Shown piece by piece: positions 50,220 through 59,564 of a DNA stretch of 64,000 bases. The position numbers and the translations under genes were made by a program. This DNA is from Planctomycetota bacterium (GTDB lineage Bacteria; Planctomycetota; Planctomycetia; Gemmatales; Gemmataceae): positions 30,153 through 94,152 of the forward strand of contig VGXS01000013.1 in the NCBI GenBank assembly GCA_016873225.1, given 5' to 3'. The notes under the pieces were generated by a model. The model was not told the DNA's origin. It ran no database searches and saw only the letters and a program-made list of their open reading frames with translations. Numbering within the stretch: the stretch's first letter is position 1; each line of letters begins with the position of its first letter.

Positions 50220-50431
50220 GGCGCGGAAGCCCTTCCTTGAGCTGCGGATCATGGTGACCGGGCATCATGCCCGGGCGCCGCCGGCGCGCGACCGACGACA
50301 AACACACCTCAGTACCCGAACTGCGAAACGGGAATCAATCCGGTTTTGGAAATCCGTCCCGATTGGCATTTATTCCGGGAGCCCCCGCTGGTTATGCCAC
50401 CCCCCCGGCCCGGACCTCCGAGGAGCAGCCC

Positions 50432-51283
50432 ATGCGCAGGATCGCCGTCATCAACCAGAAGGGCGGGGTGGGCAAAACCACCACCGCCGTCAACCTCGCC
50501 GCGGCCATCGCCGGTTCCGGCAAGCGCGCCTGCCTGATCGACCTCGATCCCCAGGCCCACGCCTCCGCCCACCTCGGCGTCGCTCCCGACAGCCGCTCAG
50601 CCACCGTCTACTCCATGCTCACCCGGGGAGCCTCATGGGCCAGCGTCCGCCGTCGCGTGGAGCCCAACCTGGAGATCGCCCCCGCGGAACTCAACCTGGC
50701 GGCGGCGGAGGTGGAACTGGCCGGCATCGTGGGCCGCGAACTCATCCTCAGGGACCAGATCCACGCCGAACCCGACGCCTGCGATGTGCTGGTGATGGAC
50801 TGCGGTCCCTCCCTTGGCGTGCTCACCCTCAACGCGCTGGCCGCCGCCAACGAGGTCATCATCCCGCTGCAGCCCCATTTCCTGGCCCTGCATGGCTTGG
50901 CCAAGCTGTTCGAGACGACGGGCCTCGTCGCCCGGCGGCTCAACCCCGGCCTCAGCGTGAGCGCCGTGGTGCTCACCCTCTGCGATGCCAACACCAGGCT
51001 GGCGCAGGAAGTGATCGGCGACCTCACGGCGTTCCTCGAAAGGGCCCGGGCCACCAACACCCCCTGGAGCCGGGCGAAACTCATGGCCACGCGCGTCCGC
51101 CGCAACATCAAGCTGGCCGAGTGCCCGAGCTTTGGCCGGTCGATCTTCACCTACGCTCCCACAAGCCATGGCGCCGAGGATTACGCGCGCTTGGCGCGCG
51201 AGGTGCTCGCGCTGGCCGATGCCGAGCCCGTGGTTCGGGCCGAGGCCGAAGTTTCCCCGGTTCTCGCCGGCGCGGGAGCCTGA
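50432..51283 (+). CDS. ParA/Soj-family ATPase
   Basis: A 283-residue deviant-Walker ATPase, start 50432 with AGGAG at 50420-50424. Walker A is KGGVGKTT (10-17) in MRRIAVINQKGGVGKTT, and LIDLDPQAHASAHLG and VMDCGPSLGVLTLNAL follow. It positions DNA or protein complexes on the nucleoid or membrane. No parB is in the window, so it may be a chromosomal Soj-like orphan or handle another cargo. It is followed after 3 nt by ybeY, a pairing that makes a strictly chromosome-partition role less certain. Confidence 0.9.
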   Translation: MRRIAVINQKGGVGKTTTAVNLAAAIAGSGKRACLIDLDPQAHASAHLGVAPDSRSATVYSMLTRGASWASVRRRVEPNLEIAPAELNLAAAEVELAGIVGRELILRDQIHAEPDACDVLVMDCGPSLGVLTLNALAAANEVIIPLQPHFLALHGLAKLFETTGLVARRLNPGLSVSAVVLTLCDANTRLAQEVIGDLTAFLERARATNTPWSRAKLMATRVRRNIKLAECPSFGRSIFTYAPTSHGAEDYARLAREVLALADAEPVVRAEAEVSPVLAGAGA

Positions 51284-51286
51284 CCG

Positions 51287-51724
51287 GTGCCCAAGGTCAG
51301 CATCGCCTCGCCTCAGGAAAAGGTGGCCATCGACAGGCCGCGGATGCGCGAGATCGTGAGGCTGGTGCTGGCCGAGGAGGACATCGCCGATTACGAGATC
51401 AGTCTGGCGTTTGTCGACAATCCCACGATCCACCGCATCAACAAGCAGTTTCTCGAGCATGATGAACCCACCGATGTGATCACCTTCCCGTATTCATCGG
51501 GCAAGGTGCTCGTCGGTGAGTTGGTGATCGGCGTGGAGGTGGCGATGGACCAGGCCGCCGCGGCGGGGCATCTCGTGGAGGCGGAACTCGCCCTGTATGT
51601 GGTTCATGGCCTGCTGCACCTGGTGGGCTACGACGACAAGGACGCGCACGACCGCCGGCAGATGCGGGCGCGCGAACGGCACCACCTCGGCGGACTCGGG
51701 TTACCCGACATTTCGCCGCGATAG
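51287..51724 (+). CDS. ybeY: rRNA maturation factor YbeY
   Basis: A 145-residue endoribonuclease for 16S rRNA 3'-end maturation, with a GTG start 3 nt after parA. It carries HDEPTDVITFP and the metal motif HGLLHLVGYDD with H107 and H111, but the third ligand, His in E. coli, is D117. Asp at this place may be tolerated as a metal ligand; the remainder of the protein looks intact. Its end is followed within 16 nt by the first degenerate palindrome of the REP array. Confidence 0.9.
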   Translation: MPKVSIASPQEKVAIDRPRMREIVRLVLAEEDIADYEISLAFVDNPTIHRINKQFLEHDEPTDVITFPYSSGKVLVGELVIGVEVAMDQAAAAGHLVEAELALYVVHGLLHLVGYDDKDAHDRRQMRARERHHLGGLGLPDISPR

Positions 51725-51740
51725 CGCGATTGCGATGCAT

Positions 51741-52070
51741 CGCCGCGGCGCTCACCGAGGTGGAAGCCAATTTTGTTGGGTGAGCACCGGGCGTGAGCCC
51801 GGTGATGGAAGCTTCCGGGAATCGCCGCGCTGACGCACGGCGCTCACCGAGATTAAAGCCAATTTTGTTGGGTGAGCACCGGTGATGGGGAATTTAAGGG
51901 AATCGCCGCGCTGACGCACGGCGCTCACCGAGATTAAAGCCAATTTTGTTGGGTCAGCACCGGGCGTGAGCCCGGTGATGGGGAACTTCCGGGAATCGCC
52001 GCGCTGACGCACGGCGCTCACCGAGACGGAAGCGGAGGTTGTTGGGTGAGCACCGGGCGTGAGCCCGGTG
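51741..52070. repeat. Left REP/BIME array (four units)
   Basis: Plus-strand palindromes begin with GGTGAG and pair CACCGGGC with GCCCGGTG around a GTGA loop: 51779-51804, 51871-51884 (shortened by 12 nt), 51952-51977 (head changed to GTCAG) and 52045-52070. Between them lie palindromes of opposite orientation, read on the minus strand as GGTGAGCGCCGTGC then GTCA-type loop then GCGCGGCG: 51741-51757 (degenerate), 51823-51849, 51904-51930 and 51997-52023. Spacers in the first units carry GATTAAAGCCAATTTTGTT-like sequence; the last unit has the other spacer type (ACGGAAGCGGAGGTTGTT). Confidence 0.9.
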
Positions 52071-52084
52071 ATGGTATCATTGAC

Positions 52085-52636
52085 TCAATCCCACCCGTGG
52101 TCGGCTTGAGGATTCCAAAGAACCAGCGGATGCTCCTGCCGCATGACATAGGAAACGGCCGCCGAAACGGCATTTTCATCCGGCAGGATTCTTTTGGACC
52201 CGCCCGTTGTCCACCATGTTCCTGATTCAGGAATCCCGAATTTCCGGTTGAGCGTCCTTGAAGCGTAGCTTTTCAAGTCTCGAAGAAGATGGGCGGGATC
52301 CGGGTCGCCAGTCACTCCGACCACCACATGAACATGGTTGGCCATGACGGCCAAAGCCAGCAGGGTCCAGCCACGGAATCGGCCTGTTTCAACAAATTGT
52401 CGGGCAGCGACTTCCGCCATCGATTGGGTCAGCCAAACGGGATTTCCCCGCATGGCCCCTCGGGCCGCGTTTTCCAGTTCCCGCACGGGCGGCAGATACG
52501 GGGTTCCGTATTCGTTGGGCCGAAATCTTTCTCCGGTTTCCTCATCGCGGATCGTGGTCACTGAACCACGGCCATCGCCGGGCAGCCATGTGCCATAGGT
52601 TGTCCATGTCAGGAACCAGCAACGGTCCATGGTCAT
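52085..52636 (-). CDS. REP-associated tyrosine transposase (RAYT, Y1/HUH family)
   Basis: A 183-residue HUH endonuclease from the ATG at 52636 (TTG at 52639 would add one residue). The metal-binding His-x-His is HVH in VMANHVHVVVG (about 101-103), and the catalytic Tyr is in DLKSYASRTLNRK (about 124), the arrangement of TnpA-REP proteins. RAYTs cut and join single-stranded REP DNA. The gene is intact, and palindromes start 14 nt downstream of its stop and 13 nt upstream of its start, so they are probably its targets. Confidence 0.92.
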   Translation of the reverse strand: MTMDRCWFLTWTTYGTWLPGDGRGSVTTIRDEETGERFRPNEYGTPYLPPVRELENAARGAMRGNPVWLTQSMAEVAARQFVETGRFRGWTLLALAVMANHVHVVVGVTGDPDPAHLLRDLKSYASRTLNRKFGIPESGTWWTTGGSKRILPDENAVSAAVSYVMRQEHPLVLWNPQADHGWD

Positions 52637-52649
52637 CAATTCTCGCCAA

Positions 52650-53081
52650 GGTGAGCACCGGGCGTGAGCCCGGTGATGGGGAATTTTAGGGAATCGCCGC
52701 GCTGACGCACGGCGCTCACCGAGACGGAAGCGGAGGTTCTTGGGTGAGCACCGGTGATGGGGAATTTAAGGGAATCGCCGCGCTGACGCACGGCGCTCAC
52801 CGAGACGGAAGCGGAGGTTGTTGGGTGAGCACCGGGCGTGAGCCCGGTGATGGGGAACTTTAGGGAATCGCCGCGCTGACGCACGGCGCTCACCGAGACG
52901 GAAGCGGAGGTTGTTGGGTGAGCACCGGGCGTGAGCCCGGTGATGGGGAACTTTAGGGAATCGCCGCGCTGACGCACGGCGCTCACCGAGACGGAAGCGG
53001 AGGTTGTTGGGTGAGCACCGGGCGTGAGCCCGGTGATGGGGAACTTTAGGGAATCGCCGCGCTGACGCACGGCGCTCACCG
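52650..53081. repeat. Right REP/BIME array (five units, 93-bp period)
   Basis: Plus-oriented palindromes start at 52650, 52743 (shortened by 12 nt), 52824, 52917 and 53010; opposite palindromes lie at 52695-52721, 52776-52802, 52869-52895, 52962-52988 and 53055-53081. Full units repeat every 93 bp and are nearly identical, with the single spacer type ACGGAAGCGGAGGTTGTT. The last palindrome ends 34 nt before the stop of the WD40 gene. Confidence 0.9.
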
Positions 53082-53115
53082 AGACGGGGGGAGAAGCCCG
53101 GTGTGGCCGGTCCCA

Positions 53116-54396: not shown

Positions 54397-55821
54397 ATGA
54401 AGAATCGACGCGGTCTGCTTCAACTGGAAGGACTCACTGAACGCATCGTTCCGGCGGTCAGCATCCGTTCCGTGGATGGGGATTTGGTGATCCGGGGCAC
54501 GCCGAATCTTGACAGTGGCAAGCCGACACTGACAATCAATGTGACAGCCGACAATACGGTCAGTATCACTGACGGCAAAACTTCTCGGGGCAGTTATTCT
54601 GTCACGGGTGATTTGATTTTAAATATGTCCAACAGGAATGATACCGTTGTTATAACCTTGAGCGGTGGAAGTCTCAATGGAGGAATATCGGCCAGCCTTC
54701 TCAATGGCAATGACTCCTTGACTGTTCGATCAATCGACGCCGAGAGAACCATATCCGGTGGTATTTCTGTGAATGGGGGCAACGGAAACGATTTTTTTGT
54801 GTTAGCAAGCGGTAATCCTGGGGGATTAAAAGTCGAAGGTGCAGTGTCATTCAATGGAGGTGCTGGAAAGGATATTGCTTTTATTAACCATACCACCGAT
54901 GAAGCAGGAACAACTAACGCTACCGGCCCACTGCTCATTGGAGCGGGTTTGACTCTCACTCGTGTTAATGGCGATACTACCAGGCATGTGAATATCGGAA
55001 CAAAAGCTACTGTTGAAATCAGTGGAAATCTTATAATCAACGCGTCTGCTGACAAACTTGTTACCAACAGATTTGTTATTGGTTCTGACACAAAAGCCGT
55101 TTCCATCGCCGGCACCTTGGCAATCACTGGCGGTCAAGGCGCAGACAATGTTGAAATCCAAAACACGACTATTGTTGATGTTATACCCGCTGAAGACGAG
55201 GTTCTTGAGATCACAATCAATCTTGACCGTGGTGTCAACAATACAAAGCTCACAGCGATTGATTTTGGAACTAGTGGTACTGATGCTGATTTTGCCTACA
55301 CCGGTGGTACGGGCGAAGACATTATTGAATTTGAAGGAACAAACACTGTGTCCGGTGATGCCATATTCAACTTTGGAAATGGACAAAATATCTTGGAGTT
55401 AAGTTCAAGTACTACATTCGACGCGGATGTTACTGTTACCGGTGGAAAAAACAACGACACGGTAGTTATCCAAGATGCCACCATTAGTGGTTTGCTTACT
55501 TTGACTATGGGTAACGGAGTCAATAATTTCACAACCACTGATAAAGCAGGCATAGCTGGCGGCCTTACCTATACGGGGGGCAGCGAAGCCGACACAGTCA
55601 GATTGGAAAACGGTGATGGCTTGGCAGGCGATGTTTCCATTTCTGTTGGCGCTGGCGGGGATACAATCGAAATTACGGGTACGACAACTGTTGGAGTCAC
55701 ATCGCTTACAGTTGACTTGGGCATCGATAGTGCAGTTGACTCATTTAAATACAATTTAATTCTGGAATCACTTATCACAATCCTGAATCAAGGTTCAGAA
55801 GATACTGTTACCTCCGAATAG
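54397..55821 (+). CDS. Secreted beta-helix-like surface protein with N-terminal LEGLTERIVPAVS motif, copy 1
   Basis: A 474-residue protein. The N-terminus MKNRRGLLQLEGLTERIVPAVS has the Planctomycete LE-x-L-x-R-x-x-PA-type motif found at the start of many of their large extracellular proteins. The rest is a long series of short strands rich in Gly, Asn, Asp, Thr (GNDSLTVR, GADTIEIT-like turns), as expected for a right-handed beta-helix or calcium-binding-type repeat fold. No cysteines or catalytic motif. Codon use is much AT-richer than everything around it, suggesting later acquisition. It ends before a strong terminator and is followed by its paralogue. Confidence 0.75.
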   Translation: MKNRRGLLQLEGLTERIVPAVSIRSVDGDLVIRGTPNLDSGKPTLTINVTADNTVSITDGKTSRGSYSVTGDLILNMSNRNDTVVITLSGGSLNGGISASLLNGNDSLTVRSIDAERTISGGISVNGGNGNDFFVLASGNPGGLKVEGAVSFNGGAGKDIAFINHTTDEAGTTNATGPLLIGAGLTLTRVNGDTTRHVNIGTKATVEISGNLIINASADKLVTNRFVIGSDTKAVSIAGTLAITGGQGADNVEIQNTTIVDVIPAEDEVLEITINLDRGVNNTKLTAIDFGTSGTDADFAYTGGTGEDIIEFEGTNTVSGDAIFNFGNGQNILELSSSTTFDADVTVTGGKNNDTVVIQDATISGLLTLTMGNGVNNFTTTDKAGIAGGLTYTGGSEADTVRLENGDGLAGDVSISVGAGGDTIEITGTTTVGVTSLTVDLGIDSAVDSFKYNLILESLITILNQGSEDTVTSE

Positions 55822-55878: not shown

Positions 55879-56012
55879 ATTGGTGGGGTTGTGACGGTTG
55901 TATCGGCGTTGGTTCCCTACCCCGGTTCTTTCTCCTTTTTGACTTCCTCCCGATCCGGTGCAACGCTTCATGCGTCAAATGGATGTTGGCACCACCGCGG
56001 AGGATCTGCACC

Positions 56013-57416
56013 ATGGCCCGTTTGCGCCCGTCGCTGGAAGGTCTCACCGAGCGAATCGTCCCCGCCGTTTCGGTCAAGTTCCTTGGCGGCAGCCTCACCA
56101 TCACCGCCAACCCGGCCAATATGTCCAACAAACTCATCATCACCCAGCAGGCCACCGACGGCAAGTTCGTCATCAGCGACAACAGCGTGAGCGTCGGCCC
56201 TTACAGGGTGACCGGCAACATCACCATCACCTCGAGCAACGCGTCCGACACCATTCAGGTGAACCTGAATCGGGGCGCCGCCCGCACCTTCCAGCTTCCC
56301 GGATTCCTGAGCATCAATTCCCGCAATGGCGCCGACACCATCACCATCAATTCCGATGCCACCAACGGTGGTCGCATCGGCGGCAACCTGATCCTCGCCA
56401 CCGGGTTTTCCAACGACACCGTGAACATCGGCACCGCCGGCGGAGCGCTCTCGATTGGCGGCGCCGTTTCCGCCAACATGGACTCCGGCGCGGACACCTT
56501 CAACCTTGGCACCACTGGCACCGACGCGAACACATTCGTCATCGGCAGGGGCGTTACCCTGCTGCGCGCCAACACCGTGAACATGGGAACCAAAACGGAT
56601 CCCCTCACGGTCAACGGCACCGTAGCCATCGACAACACGCTCGACTACGGCATCACGAACACCATCCGGTTCGGCATCACCAGCGATGTTCTTCAGGCGC
56701 GCTCCGCGGGCAACTTCTGTTACAACGGCGGCACCCTGATCGACGACATCGGCTTGTACGGCACCATTCAGGGCGCCCCCGGCAAGAATTCCGTCATCAA
56801 CATGGGCCAGGGCGCGAACATCCTCGACATCAACGCCGTGATCGGCCTTGGAACCTCCTCCGACCTGATCGTGACCGGCGGAGCGGGCATTGACGACATA
56901 TCGTTGGGTGATGACACGGACATTGCCAACGATGCGATCTTCAGCCTGGGAGCAGGCGATAACCTTTATGACCTCAACAACACTTTCGCCGTTGGTGGAA
57001 ACATGAGCATCACCGCCGGCAATGGCGTTGATATTGTCGGCATCTTTGCCGGGCAGATTGGCGGCGACCTGACCCTGAGCCTTGGCAACGGTTCCAACAG
57101 CCTCACCTTCGCGGGCGCCACGACCGGTGCCGCCCAGTCGGCCAGTTGCCACGACTTCACCTACAACGGCGGGGATGGCGACGACGAGATCACCTTCGAT
57201 GCCGACAATGGCGCCGTGGAAAACAGCCTGACGGTGAACCTGGGCTCGGGTTCCGACATCTTTAACGCCACCGACAGCGGCGACTCGTCGTACCTGACCG
57301 GGTTCATCGACCTCGGCCTTGATCTTGATCCGGATCAAGTGACTTACCGTTCGGCCTTGGCCGCGGTAACCGAGATCGTGAATATCTTCCCGAACGACAC
57401 CGTCACGGCGGTGTGA
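56013..57416 (+). CDS. Secreted beta-helix-like surface protein with N-terminal LEGLTERIVPAVS motif, copy 2
   Basis: A 467-residue paralogue of copy 1 starting at 56013, set by GGAGG about 9 nt upstream; a frame start at 55983 would precede the motif. The N-terminal LEGLTERIVPAVS is identical to copy 1, the body has the same Gly/Asn/Asp/Thr-rich beta repeats (GADTITINSD, GSNSLTFAGA), and the C-termini agree (NDTVTAV against EDTVTSE). Base composition is GC-rich and like the genome, in contrast to copy 1. Secretion route and function are unknown; a cell-surface structural role is likely. Confidence 0.75.
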   Translation: MARLRPSLEGLTERIVPAVSVKFLGGSLTITANPANMSNKLIITQQATDGKFVISDNSVSVGPYRVTGNITITSSNASDTIQVNLNRGAARTFQLPGFLSINSRNGADTITINSDATNGGRIGGNLILATGFSNDTVNIGTAGGALSIGGAVSANMDSGADTFNLGTTGTDANTFVIGRGVTLLRANTVNMGTKTDPLTVNGTVAIDNTLDYGITNTIRFGITSDVLQARSAGNFCYNGGTLIDDIGLYGTIQGAPGKNSVINMGQGANILDINAVIGLGTSSDLIVTGGAGIDDISLGDDTDIANDAIFSLGAGDNLYDLNNTFAVGGNMSITAGNGVDIVGIFAGQIGGDLTLSLGNGSNSLTFAGATTGAAQSASCHDFTYNGGDGDDEITFDADNGAVENSLTVNLGSGSDIFNATDSGDSSYLTGFIDLGLDLDPDQVTYRSALAAVTEIVNIFPNDTVTAV

Positions 57417-57530: not shown

Positions 57531-58664
57531 TCACGCCGCGGCGCGGAGCGACACCTCCACCTTGGGCATTTGCGGGAACGGGATCGTGGCGGGCTGGGAG
57601 AAGTGGGCCTGTCCCTTGGGCGTGGCGAGCTTTTCCCACTGGGAACCCGGCAGGCCCATCGCCAGCTTGAGCGCGCCGATGGCGCCGGCGTACACCGGAT
57701 CGGGTACCCTCTTCACCTTCGCCTGGCCGTATTCGCGCAGTCCTTCCTCGAGGGCCCGGTCGAGGCCCTTGATCTGGCTGCCGCCTCCACCCAGAAGGAT
57801 GTTCGAGAGCAGCCGGGGCTGGAACTCGGGGTCGTGCCGGGCGATGAGGTCGCGGATGCCCTCGATGATGGGGTTGACGATGCGTCGGCAGGCCTCGCGA
57901 ACCACGCCGGTGACATCAAGCTGGGTGGGCTTGCCCCGGCACGGCAGCGTGACGATGGCCCGTTCGTTGTTGTCGATGACGCCACCATGGCGTTCCTTGA
58001 TTTCCCTGAGCATGGCGCGGGAGAACTGGGCCTCGGGGTGCGCCTGGCGGAGCAGGGCGTCGAGGTGCTCATCGACGAAGTCGCCGCCCAGGGGGATGGT
58101 GACCTGCTCATCGTCGGTTGGCAGGGTGCCGCGCAGCGGGCAGAGGTCGATGGTGCCGGCGCCGATGTCCACCACGAGGGCGTCGGACAGCTTGTTGCAT
58201 CCATAGGCGATGCTGAAAGGCTCGGAAACGATCAGCGCGGCGTCGAAGGTGGTGGACGCGGCCTCGAGGATGACCGCCTTGCTTTGCACGCTGGCCCTGC
58301 TGGGGGCGCCGATGACGCCGAAGACGGGCAAGCCCTTGGGAGGGCGGGTGATGGCCACGGCATGCTCGACCACCTGGCGGGCGGCCTCCTTGTGCGCGGC
58401 GACGCGCGCGGCGTCGAGTTTCACATCCTTGCCGTCGAGGTATTTCAGGGCGCCCTTCTCGAACGGGCGGATGATGTCGAGCGCCAGTCGGTGCTCGGTG
58501 AGGTCGTTGGCGAAGACGGTGTCGCGGCCCAGCAGGGTGCGGGCCACATGGTCCTTGGGCTTGCCCACGGCGGTGGGGATCACCTCGCGTACGCCGTGCG
58601 CGGTGGCCACGGCGGTCTTGAAGGTTCCCAGGTCCATTCCCACGAACACGGCTCGGTGATCCAT
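57531..58664 (-). CDS. MamK-like bacterial actin
   Basis: A 377-residue ATPase of the actin/Hsp70 superfamily, start 58664 with AAGGAG about 10 nt upstream. Phosphate 1 is DLGTFKTAV (11-19), phosphate 2 DIGAGTIDL (166-174), and the adenosine motif GGGGSQIKG (292-300). Other blocks (GKPKDHVARTLLGR, VIGAPSRASVQSKAV, IVSEPFSIAYG, LRGTLPTDDEQVTIPLGGDFVDE, PDPVYAGAIGALKLA) match MamK, the filament that aligns magnetosomes, better than MreB, ParM or FtsA as I recall them. It is predicted to form cytoplasmic filaments. It follows a membrane protein gene by 45 nt in the same operon. No other magnetosome gene is in the window. Confidence 0.88.
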   Translation of the reverse strand: MDHRAVFVGMDLGTFKTAVATAHGVREVIPTAVGKPKDHVARTLLGRDTVFANDLTEHRLALDIIRPFEKGALKYLDGKDVKLDAARVAAHKEAARQVVEHAVAITRPPKGLPVFGVIGAPSRASVQSKAVILEAASTTFDAALIVSEPFSIAYGCNKLSDALVVDIGAGTIDLCPLRGTLPTDDEQVTIPLGGDFVDEHLDALLRQAHPEAQFSRAMLREIKERHGGVIDNNERAIVTLPCRGKPTQLDVTGVVREACRRIVNPIIEGIRDLIARHDPEFQPRLLSNILLGGGGSQIKGLDRALEEGLREYGQAKVKRVPDPVYAGAIGALKLAMGLPGSQWEKLATPKGQAHFSQPATIPFPQMPKVEVSLRAAA

Positions 58665-58709
58665 GACTTCGGTCTCCTTAATCGGTTGGTTTGAAGAACA
58701 ATCGAACTC

Positions 58710-59564
58710 TCAAGCGCTGGTTGATGTCCCGGGGGCTTGCGACTCCCGGCCCGTGGCGCTGATGGCGTCGCGCAGCGACAGGTTGGCATCGACCAGGCCG
58801 GCCAGCAGGGCCTCCTCGGCCTGCGACGCCCGCGCTTCCATCTCCGCCCTTTCCTCCTCGAAGGTCGGGCCGAGGGTGAAGTTGGGTTCCCGCGGGCCCT
58901 CGTCGATCGGATCGGCGGGCGCGTGGCCGTCTTTGCGGGACTTGCGTCGGCGCCTGTGTTCGGGTGCGGGCGGCGCCCAGGCAAACACGGGGGCCTGCGA
59001 CTGCGGCATGGTGACATTGACGACGGGCGCCGCGGCGGGCGTGCGCGGGCGCATGATGGCGACCAGGGCCAGCATGGTGGCGGCGGAACCGAGGCCCAGC
59101 GACACCGACTGCATGTCACGGCCGGTCACCACGATCCATTCCCAGATGTCCTTGGGATCATCAAACGCCGGGCGCGGATTGGCAAACGGCTTGGGAGCGG
59201 TGGCGACCGTTGGTTGTTCAGCCGGTTTCGCCGCCGGCTCGTCAGCCTTGGCCGGAACCGGCAGGTCCAAGGATTCCTGTGGCGGCGCCGGCCTGAAAAC
59301 CGGCAAGGTGAGCGGTTCGGATGGCTCACGGAAATCGACCCGCCTCAGGGGCGTGGCCACGGCGATCACGGGCTGGCCTTCCTCGGATTTGGCTTGAGCG
59401 GAGGCCTCGGGCTTGGATGTCGCTGGTTCCGGCTTCGGCTCAGCGGCGGTTTTTTTGGCCGCTTCCACGCGACGGATGCCGACAAACTGCTCGATTTCCT
59501 GGGCGCCGACACTGGCGCAGGCCCAGGCGAGGCAGGCGGAGGCGATGACGGAGGCGCGTCCCAT
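58710..59564 (-). CDS. Single-pass membrane protein with Pro-rich exterior and basic cytoplasmic tail
   Basis: A 284-residue protein with a signal peptide (MGRASVIASACLAWACASVGA, residues 1-21), a Pro/Ala/Lys-rich low-complexity segment (about 35-135), one membrane helix (about 153-172, SVSLGLGSAATMLALVAIM), a basic stretch HRRRRKSRK (203-211) placing the tail in the cytoplasm, and a C-terminal helical, coiled-coil-prone part (236-270). No known domain. As it is encoded just upstream of the actin-like gene on the same strand, it is a candidate membrane anchor for the filament (inference). Confidence 0.7.
   Translation of the reverse strand: MGRASVIASACLAWACASVGAQEIEQFVGIRRVEAAKKTAAEPKPEPATSKPEASAQAKSEEGQPVIAVATPLRRVDFREPSEPLTLPVFRPAPPQESLDLPVPAKADEPAAKPAEQPTVATAPKPFANPRPAFDDPKDIWEWIVVTGRDMQSVSLGLGSAATMLALVAIMRPRTPAAAPVVNVTMPQSQAPVFAWAPPAPEHRRRRKSRKDGHAPADPIDEGPREPNFTLGPTFEEERAEMEARASQAEEALLAGLVDANLSLRDAISATGRESQAPGTSTSA

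What the first reader, a model, noticed from the sequence alone, without database searches (positions are those of the whole stretch)
57531..58664. MamK-like actin in a Planctomycete with no other magnetosome genes nearby
Several blocks spread over the protein (GKPKDHVARTLLGR, VIGAPSRASVQSKAV, IVSEPFSIAYG, LRGTLPTDDEQVTIPLGGDFVDE, PVYAGAIGALKLA) fit MamK more closely than MreB, ParM or FtsA as I recall these families. MamK aligns magnetosomes in magnetotactic bacteria. Planctomycetes have complex endomembranes and lack FtsZ in many lineages, so an actin that organises another membrane compartment or cargo would be of real interest. That no mam genes surround it argues for a distinct cellular role.
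Basis: partly seen in the sequence, partly recalled or inferred. Interest (0 to 1): 0.8.

Follow-up and report, generated by a model that had tools for sequence, protein, structure and literature searches.

The report
Membrane-tethered MamK-type actin in planctomycetes
A planctomycete carries a relative of the actin that lines up magnetosomes, encoded right behind a predicted membrane protein whose conserved tail helix likely ties the filament to the cell membrane, so this actin family would be a general bacterial positioning system with exchangeable adaptors and not only a magnetosome part.

Summary
The ORF (57531-58664, minus, 377 aa) is real and MamK-like: NCBIfam MamK 372 bits (cut-off 400), BeeR 205, MreB 47; nearest solved structure is the MamK filament. 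In the tree it lies in a supported Planctomycetia branch of the MamK superfamily, far from MreB. No MamB match over cut-off in the 82%-complete genome. The actin is patchy: 14 of 95 genomes of its family, 143 of 392 of its phylum.

New here: the gene just upstream (58710-59564) encodes a predicted single-pass membrane protein whose C-terminal helix carries a motif, [LM]Lxx[IV][FL]xxN[LV]xL. A profile of Planctomycetia tails picks the ORF upstream of the actin as best segment in 36 of 67 other loci (about 2 expected). Across 95 whole genomes it finds the tail in the 14 with the actin plus one whose adaptor gene is cut at a contig end. Elsewhere the tail follows PAS or GGDEF domains, and one clear magnetosome cluster carries it before mamK; two others miss the strict pattern. 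20 of 24 Planctomycetia actins end in Ala-Ala, as do tmRNA tags of two relatives. Likely mechanism: membrane-anchored actin filament with exchangeable adaptors. Cargo unknown; filament, topology and binding untested.

The parts
57531..58664 (-). MamK-type actin, 377 aa
   Evidence: NCBIfam MamK 371.8 bits, cut-off 400; PDB 5ljw 240 bits; AlphaFold model pLDDT 88, best Foldseek match MamK filament 5ljv
58152..58169 (-). phosphate-2 motif DIGAGT (residues 166-171; D166 = MamK D161)
   Evidence: D166, G168, G170 and T171 invariant in 28 sequences; alignment with MamK
58221..58223 (-). E148, equivalent of MamK E143 (catalytic role recalled)
   Evidence: alignment
57534..57539 (-). C-terminal Ala-Ala after a disordered linker; predicted ClpXP-type degron
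   Evidence: 20 of 24 Planctomycetia actins end in AA, 2 of 67 others, 9 of 193 background genes; residues 361-377 pLDDT under 50
58674..58679 (-). AAGGAG, likely ribosome-binding site of the actin gene
   Evidence: sequence
58710..59564 (-). partner: predicted single-pass membrane protein, 284 aa, directly upstream, 45 nt gap, same strand
   Evidence: no Pfam or NCBIfam match at E up to 1
59502..59564 (-). predicted signal peptide of the partner (residues 1-21)
   Evidence: judged by eye, no predictor run
59052..59108 (-). predicted transmembrane helix (residues 153-171)
   Evidence: hydropathy peak 1.85; model helix 152-171
58740..58862 (-). predicted cytoplasmic C-terminal helix (residues 235-275), proposed actin-docking tail
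   Evidence: the longest ordered part of the model, mean pLDDT 92-93 in the blocks 241-270
58773..58808 (-). core tail motif LLAGLVDANLSL (residues 253-264)
   Evidence: the Asn is invariant in 18 aligned tails

Best explanation
This is a two-gene module: a MamK-type actin and, directly upstream, a predicted single-pass inner-membrane protein whose conserved C-terminal helix likely docks the actin filament to the membrane. Shown: the pairing, the shared tail motif, the kept ATPase residues, the branch in the tree. Inferred: the actin polymerises with ATP as MamK and BeeR do; the tail helix binds the filament or its monomers; the disordered, proline-rich part of the adaptor lies in the periplasm and links the filament to an envelope structure that must be placed in the cell. 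In other lineages the same tail follows PAS or GGDEF domains, so the tail would be the constant plug and the rest the lineage-specific socket. Turnover would come from ATP hydrolysis and, in most Planctomycetia members, from proteolysis through the C-terminal Ala-Ala. The cargo is not known.
For: Upstream same-strand gene with a hydropathy-called membrane segment after the N-terminal region in 24 of the 28 Planctomycetia-type loci printed (some are duplicates); the other four are L143 and L144 (segment under the threshold), L151 (wrong gene call) and L160 (a different gene). Profile of 21 Planctomycetia tails (one, L148, entered out of register): in 67 other loci the best-scoring of all stop-to-stop segments is the ORF upstream of the actin in 36, 2.07 expected. 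Strict pattern (written after seeing the tails): upstream ORF in 55 of 80 loci and 17 of 21 regions, background 11 of 19,965 segments (the two sets share at least six loci). By profile or pattern, 19 of the 21 regions. Whole genomes: tail in 15 of 95 family genomes = the 14 with the actin plus G393, whose partner gene is cut at a contig end; none in the other 80. 8 of the 14 lent a row to that profile; the weakest hit, G401, has E 0.007. Model: ordered membrane helix and C-terminal helix, nearly all the rest of low confidence. mg-1g50, immediately upstream of mamK-II in MV-1 as mamJ is upstream of mamK in magnetospirilla, acts like MamJ (PMC10653835, section 7 read). McaA, a membrane protein with a periplasmic and a cytoplasmic part, changes MamK dynamics together with McaB (PMC12642318, title and passages).
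Against: No binding, polymerisation or localisation data. Topology rests on hydropathy and reading by eye; L154's upstream protein shows no signal-like start. In 31 of the 67 held-out loci the upstream ORF was not the top segment. The upstream ORF lacks the strict motif in 25 of 80 loci; eight of these have an upstream gene ending near [DN]PDDxxW instead. L158 and L160 gave no upstream tail by profile or pattern. Orphan adaptor paralogues exist without an actin beside them (G000 contig 22, G393 contig 2). Two of the three clear magnetosome clusters, L130 and L136, do not meet the strict motif.
Confidence: 0.62

Rival explanations
1. The tail is a regulator and not a tether: the upstream protein nucleates, severs or activates the ATPase of the actin in response to a signal, as MamJ and McaA/McaB tune MamK turnover.
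For: Upstream genes in other lineages carry GGDEF (L102, weakly L119) or PAS (L124) domains with the tail; L086 has receiver domains but no tail. McaA and McaB alter MamK dynamics (PMC12642318).
Against: The Planctomycetia upstream proteins scanned (window, L069, L079, L156, L142) matched no signalling domain and are membrane-bound by prediction.
Confidence: 0.2
2. Cell-shape or growth actin that stands in for MreB.
For: No MreB match (E under 1e-25) in the 22 of 22 genomes of this family that I searched, while 4 of 4 genomes from other classes have one.
Against: Only 14 of 95 genomes of the family have this actin; the 8 searched actin-negative, MreB-negative relatives live without either. I recognised no mreC, mreD or rodZ beside it by eye; they were not searched for.
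Confidence: 0.08
3. DNA-segregating actin of ParM/Alp type.
For: A ParA-type ATPase gene lies about 6 kb away and about 1.4 kb from the actin in the same-genus genome G392.
Against: No relative at E under 1e-5 in 72,556 plasmid or 50,697 phage records; the neighbour is a predicted membrane protein; the best families are MamK and BeeR.
Confidence: 0.04
4. Relic or unseen part of a magnetosome island.
For: Planctomycetota with magnetosome genes exist (PMC7602337, passages; L099 and L124 here by weak BLAST matches). The genome is 82% complete.
Against: No MamB match over cut-off in the 14 actin-positive genomes of the family, though MamB-like genes of real clusters here also score under it (180-252 bits); the best own match, 150.7 bits, sits beside what looks by eye like an RND adaptor gene. 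The branch is apart from magnetosome MamK.
Confidence: 0.04

Closest known systems
MamK of magnetotactic bacteria (NF040964; PDB 5ljv, 5ljw, 5jyg)
   Same: Fold and sequence (39% identity in the Foldseek alignment); residues E143 and D161; adaptor gene upstream, as mamJ before mamK
   Different: Under the curated cut-off; own Planctomycetia branch; no magnetosome genes seen; C-terminal linker with Ala-Ala; predicted membrane-anchored partner
BeeR of Verrucomicrobiota (NF053558; PDB 8r2n)
   Same: MamK-related actin in bacteria without magnetosomes, function unknown (PMC11929497, part 1 of 2 of the text read)
   Different: 205 bits against a cut-off of 530; no 30-50 residue N-terminal extension; no partner gene mentioned in the part read
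MamJ, Mg-1g50, MamY, McaA (adaptors or membrane organisers of MamK)
   Same: Position upstream (MamJ, Mg-1g50); plan with periplasmic part, membrane segment and cytoplasmic part (McaA)
   Different: Partner has no match in NCBIfam or Pfam; MamJ sequence not at hand, tail not compared
Coiled-coil-like proteins before mamK in the magnetosome cluster L078 and the probable ones L124 and L099
   Same: Same C-terminal tail motif: directly before mamK in L078 and L124, about 0.85 kb or more before it in L099
   Different: Short soluble proteins, or a PAS protein (L124), instead of membrane proteins

Membership tests
MamK (magnetosome actin) | NCBIfam NF040964 over the curated cut-off of 400 bits | tested here: not met
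   371.8 bits
MamK (magnetosome actin) | equivalents of E143 and D161 | tested here: met
   E148, D166
MamK (magnetosome actin) | lies within magnetosome MamK in the tree | tested here: not met
   separate Planctomycetia branch, SH-aLRT 96%; nine magnetosome or like rows as one clade are not rejected (p-AU 0.508)
MamK (magnetosome actin) | magnetosome genes in the genome | tested here: inconclusive
   MamB none over cut-off, genome 82% complete; the other mam genes not searched genome-wide
MamK (magnetosome actin) | double-stranded filament | not testable with these tools
   monomer model only
BeeR | NF053558 over 530 bits | tested here: not met
   205.5 bits
BeeR | disordered 30-50 aa N-terminal extension | tested here: not met
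   first strand begins at residue 6
MreB | NCBIfam MreB models over cut-off (293 or 365.75 bits) | tested here: not met
   47.1 and 42.1 bits; MreB rows far outside in the tree
MamJ-type adaptor (partner gene) | gene immediately upstream of the MamK-type actin | tested here: met
   45 nt upstream, same strand
MamJ-type adaptor (partner gene) | sequence relationship to MamJ | not tested
   no MamJ sequence obtained; NCBIfam scan of the partner empty, and whether that library holds a MamJ model was not checked
MamJ-type adaptor (partner gene) | binds the actin | not testable with these tools
   needs an experiment

The most novel reading that the evidence does not exclude
MamK is one branch of a large bacterial actin family that works with one constant docking helix and exchangeable adaptors: the same short C-terminal helix plugs membrane proteins (Planctomycetia), PAS or GGDEF proteins (other Planctomycetota) and magnetosome coiled-coil proteins onto the filament. 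Magnetosomes would share, and may have borrowed, an actin-plus-adaptor positioning module most of whose users place other, still unknown cargo.
Probability: 0.45. Interest if true: 0.87.

Novelty: new variant of a known kind. Interest (0 to 1): 0.72.

Why it matters
MamK is the textbook organelle-positioning actin of bacteria, known from magnetosomes, and its adaptors have been seen as lineage-specific. A docking helix shared by magnetosome and non-magnetosome partners would give one testable rule for how this actin family finds cargo, and would point to unknown positioned structures in planctomycetes, which lack FtsZ (PMC6952346, passages) and, in the 22 genomes of this family that I searched, MreB. 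It is directly testable in a cultured relative: Limnoglobus roseus PX52 has the pair.

Tried and rejected
Cargo guesses: bacterial microcompartments occur in 41 of 95 family genomes but in only 3 of the 14 with the actin, so they are an unlikely cargo. Gas vesicles: 0 of 95, but the control rang nowhere, so this says little. Mobile element: no relative in plasmids or phages. Magnetosome: MamB, no match over cut-off. MreB replacement: see rivals.

Tree: the quick tree drew magnetosome MamK scattered among the planctomycete actins, but one clade for nine such rows is not rejected (p-AU 0.508; 0.486 without the Magnetospirillum row), so I do not claim that magnetosome MamK is nested. Three of the nine (L080, L089, L097) show no clear mam genes here. 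For these tests I dropped four long-branch rows (BeeR, L060, L058, L158), and I put the unnamed L072 into the Planctomycetia group after seeing the first tree.

Partner by whole-sequence search: found only in the genus (3 of 31 genomes); the tail alone reveals the others. The strict pattern was written after reading the tails, so the held-out profile test is the cleaner figure. 'Planctomycetia' is my label for the class of the window's genome plus named loci with like actins and tails. Ala-Ala: Limnoglobus (ends KRK) and three others of 24 lack it. tmRNA tags: of four genomes read, two end in LAA, one gave an implausible tag, one no gene; the window's own tmRNA was not found over cut-off.

Literature: the listings showed no paper on a partner of planctomycete MamK-type actins; PMC7203096 speaks of planctobacterial MamK actin-ancestors (abstract passage).

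Full report
1. The observation. The ORF at 57531-58664 on the minus strand is 377 aa, starts with ATG behind AAGGAG and contains all the quoted blocks. NCBIfam ranks MamK first (371.8 bits, curated cut-off 400), then BeeR (205.5) and MreB (47.1). Against solved structures MamK scores 240 bits, BeeR 145, MreB 52. The AlphaFold model (28-row alignment, pLDDT 88, pTM 0.85) matches the MamK filament subunit 5ljv best (TM 0.94 by target length, 39% identity), then other MamK chains and BeeR, then MreB. The equivalents of MamK E143 and D161 are kept (E148, D166).

2. Where it occurs. A protein search found 2137 relatives among the 7997 candidates scored; the 120 listed are 60-97% identical. In whole genomes with the MamK model: one match in its own genome; at E under 1e-30, 14 of 95 genomes of its family, 24 of 297 of its class, 143 of 392 of its phylum, 90 of the 392 over the MamK cut-off. 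The 14 named control genomes gave none at that threshold. So MamK-type actins are common but patchy in Planctomycetota. The family includes a genome whose single contig has the length of the Limnoglobus roseus PX52 chromosome, so the window is most likely from Gemmataceae (the family of Limnoglobus is recalled). No MreB at E under 1e-25 in the 22 of 22 genomes of this family that I searched, against 4 of 4 from other classes that have one.

3. Tree. 74 rows, quick IQ-TREE: MreB is far outside; the window falls with the Planctomycetia rows. Without four long-branch rows, 22 rows (Planctomycetia plus the unnamed L072, added after the first tree) are one side of a branch with 96% SH-aLRT. Nine rows of magnetosome or like MamK as one clade are not rejected (p-AU 0.508). 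So the window actin is a branch beside magnetosome MamK and not a magnetosome MamK; the deeper order is open.

4. The partner. I fetched 80 loci from named genomes (the best 80 of 410 confirmed) and 20 regions around relatives. In the Planctomycetia-type loci the gene directly upstream, on the same strand, mostly encodes a protein with a signal-like start (by eye; L154 lacks it), a long stretch rich in proline, alanine or serine, one late hydrophobic segment and a short tail; a hydropathy-called segment beyond the start was present in 24 of the 28 loci printed. Overall sequence is so divergent that a whole-protein search finds it only in the genus (3 of 31 genomes). The tails align: about 37 residues ending in a helix with the pattern [LM][LMV]xx[IVL][FL]xxN[LIVM]x[LM], the Asn invariant in 18 aligned tails. 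In the window this is LLAGLVDANLSL. The model of the window partner (10-row alignment, mean pLDDT 57) is confident only in the C-terminal helix 235-275 and, less so, the membrane helix 152-171.

5. Is the tail more than chance? (a) A profile of 21 Planctomycetia tails (one, L148, out of register) was run over 23,494 stop-to-stop segments; its strong hits are almost all upstream of an actin or are adaptor paralogues. (b) Held-out loci: in 67 loci not used for the profile, the top-scoring segment of the whole locus is the upstream ORF in 36; 2.07 expected; in 31 it is not. (c) Strict pattern, written afterwards: upstream ORF in 55 of 80 loci and 17 of 21 Planctomycetia regions, against 11 of 19,965 background segments; the two sets overlap. 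(d) Whole genomes: the tail profile of 18 rows hits 15 of 95 family genomes at E up to 0.01: all 14 with the actin, and G393, where the hit is an orphan paralogue and the partner gene itself (201 of 284 residues) runs off a contig end, so the actin may be missing only from the assembly. None of the other 80 has it. Eight of the 14 lent a row to this profile; the six that did not (G476, G463, G436, G490, G423, G401) hit too, some of them close relatives of rows used, G401 only at E 0.007.

6. The rest of the adaptor varies. Of 10 upstream proteins and nine more entries (one, L102, in both), Pfam and NCBIfam find GGDEF in L102 (and weakly in L119), PAS in L124 and two receiver stretches in L086; the first three have the tail, L086 does not. 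The rest had no convincing domain. Eight loci without the strict tail have an upstream gene ending near [DN]PDDxxW. L111 and L121 have a second protein with the tail, GGDEF-like by eye, about 6.6 kb downstream.

7. Magnetosome clusters. L130 carries MamM over its cut-off and a MamB-like gene; L136 carries a MamB-like transporter, a MamE-like gene and FeoB; L078 a MamB-like transporter and FeoB. L078 has the name of a MAG listed with magnetosome genes in PMC7602337 (nS315_bin20, passages). L099 and L124 are Planctomycetota MAGs with weak BLAST matches to such genes. The ORF before mamK bears the strict tail in L078, L080, L089, L097 and L124 (clear mam genes only in L078); in L099 two tail-bearing ORFs lie about 0.85 kb or more upstream; in L130 and L136 the strict pattern is not met. 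I could not obtain MamJ to compare.

8. C-terminal Ala-Ala. 20 of 24 Planctomycetia actins end in AA, against 2 of 67 other loci (one of these, L072, is in the Planctomycetia branch) and 9 of 193 background genes in the same regions; 78 of the 120 listed homologues do. The linker before it varies in length and, in the window's model, is of low confidence. tmRNA tags read from the same-genus genome G392 and from the L. roseus genome end in LAA. [quoted passage not shown] I infer a degron; L. roseus itself lacks it.

9. Mechanism. Best reading: an ATP-driven MamK-type filament held at the inner membrane by a single-pass adaptor whose tail helix docks on the actin; the periplasmic part would connect to an envelope structure. 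Shown are the pairing, motif, co-occurrence and kept active-site residues; inferred are polymerisation, docking, topology and turnover by proteolysis; unknown is the cargo. Bacterial microcompartments are unlikely cargo (in 3 of 14 actin-positive genomes).

10. Known or new. MamK with MamJ, MamY, McaA and McaB is the known kind (PMC10653835 section 7; PMC13052382 passages; PMC12642318 passages). BeeR shows that MamK relatives exist in bacteria without magnetosomes (PMC11929497, part 1 of 2). The planctomycete branch with its membrane adaptor and the tail shared across adaptors did not appear in the papers that my searches listed. I rate it a new variant of a known kind.

Noticed in passing
window 51793-52074 and 52744-53087, with ORF 52085-52639 (minus): Tandem repeats of about 93 bases on both sides of a Y1-transposase-like gene (PF01797), resembling a REP-associated transposase with its repeats.
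   Followed up: partly
window 54397-55821 and 55983-57416 (plus): Two neighbouring ORFs of 474 and 477 aa share the N-terminal stretch LEGLTERIVPAVS and have no Pfam or NCBIfam match.
   Followed up: no
window 50372-51283 and 51287-51724 (plus): ParA-type ATPase and YbeY genes side by side about 6 kb from the actin; in the same-genus genome G392 (L141 2800-4266) they lie 1 to 1.4 kb from it, so the window may carry an insertion between.
   Followed up: partly
L161 8834-9433 (G000 contig 22) and L164 11181-11774 (G393): Orphan paralogue of the adaptor with the same tail and no actin beside it; in G392 a paralogue is directly upstream of the adaptor.
   Followed up: partly
L076, L086, L090, L091, L103, L104, L112, L126: A second type of gene upstream of MamK-type actins ends near [DN]PDDxxW instead of the tail helix; it may be another docking motif.
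   Followed up: no
L099, L124: Planctomycetota MAGs with weak matches to magnetosome genes have two tail-bearing ORFs before mamK.
   Followed up: partly
L146, L147, L150, L152, L153, gene downstream of the actin: A further protein with a signal-like start (by eye) follows the actin directly in these relatives, not in the window.
   Followed up: no
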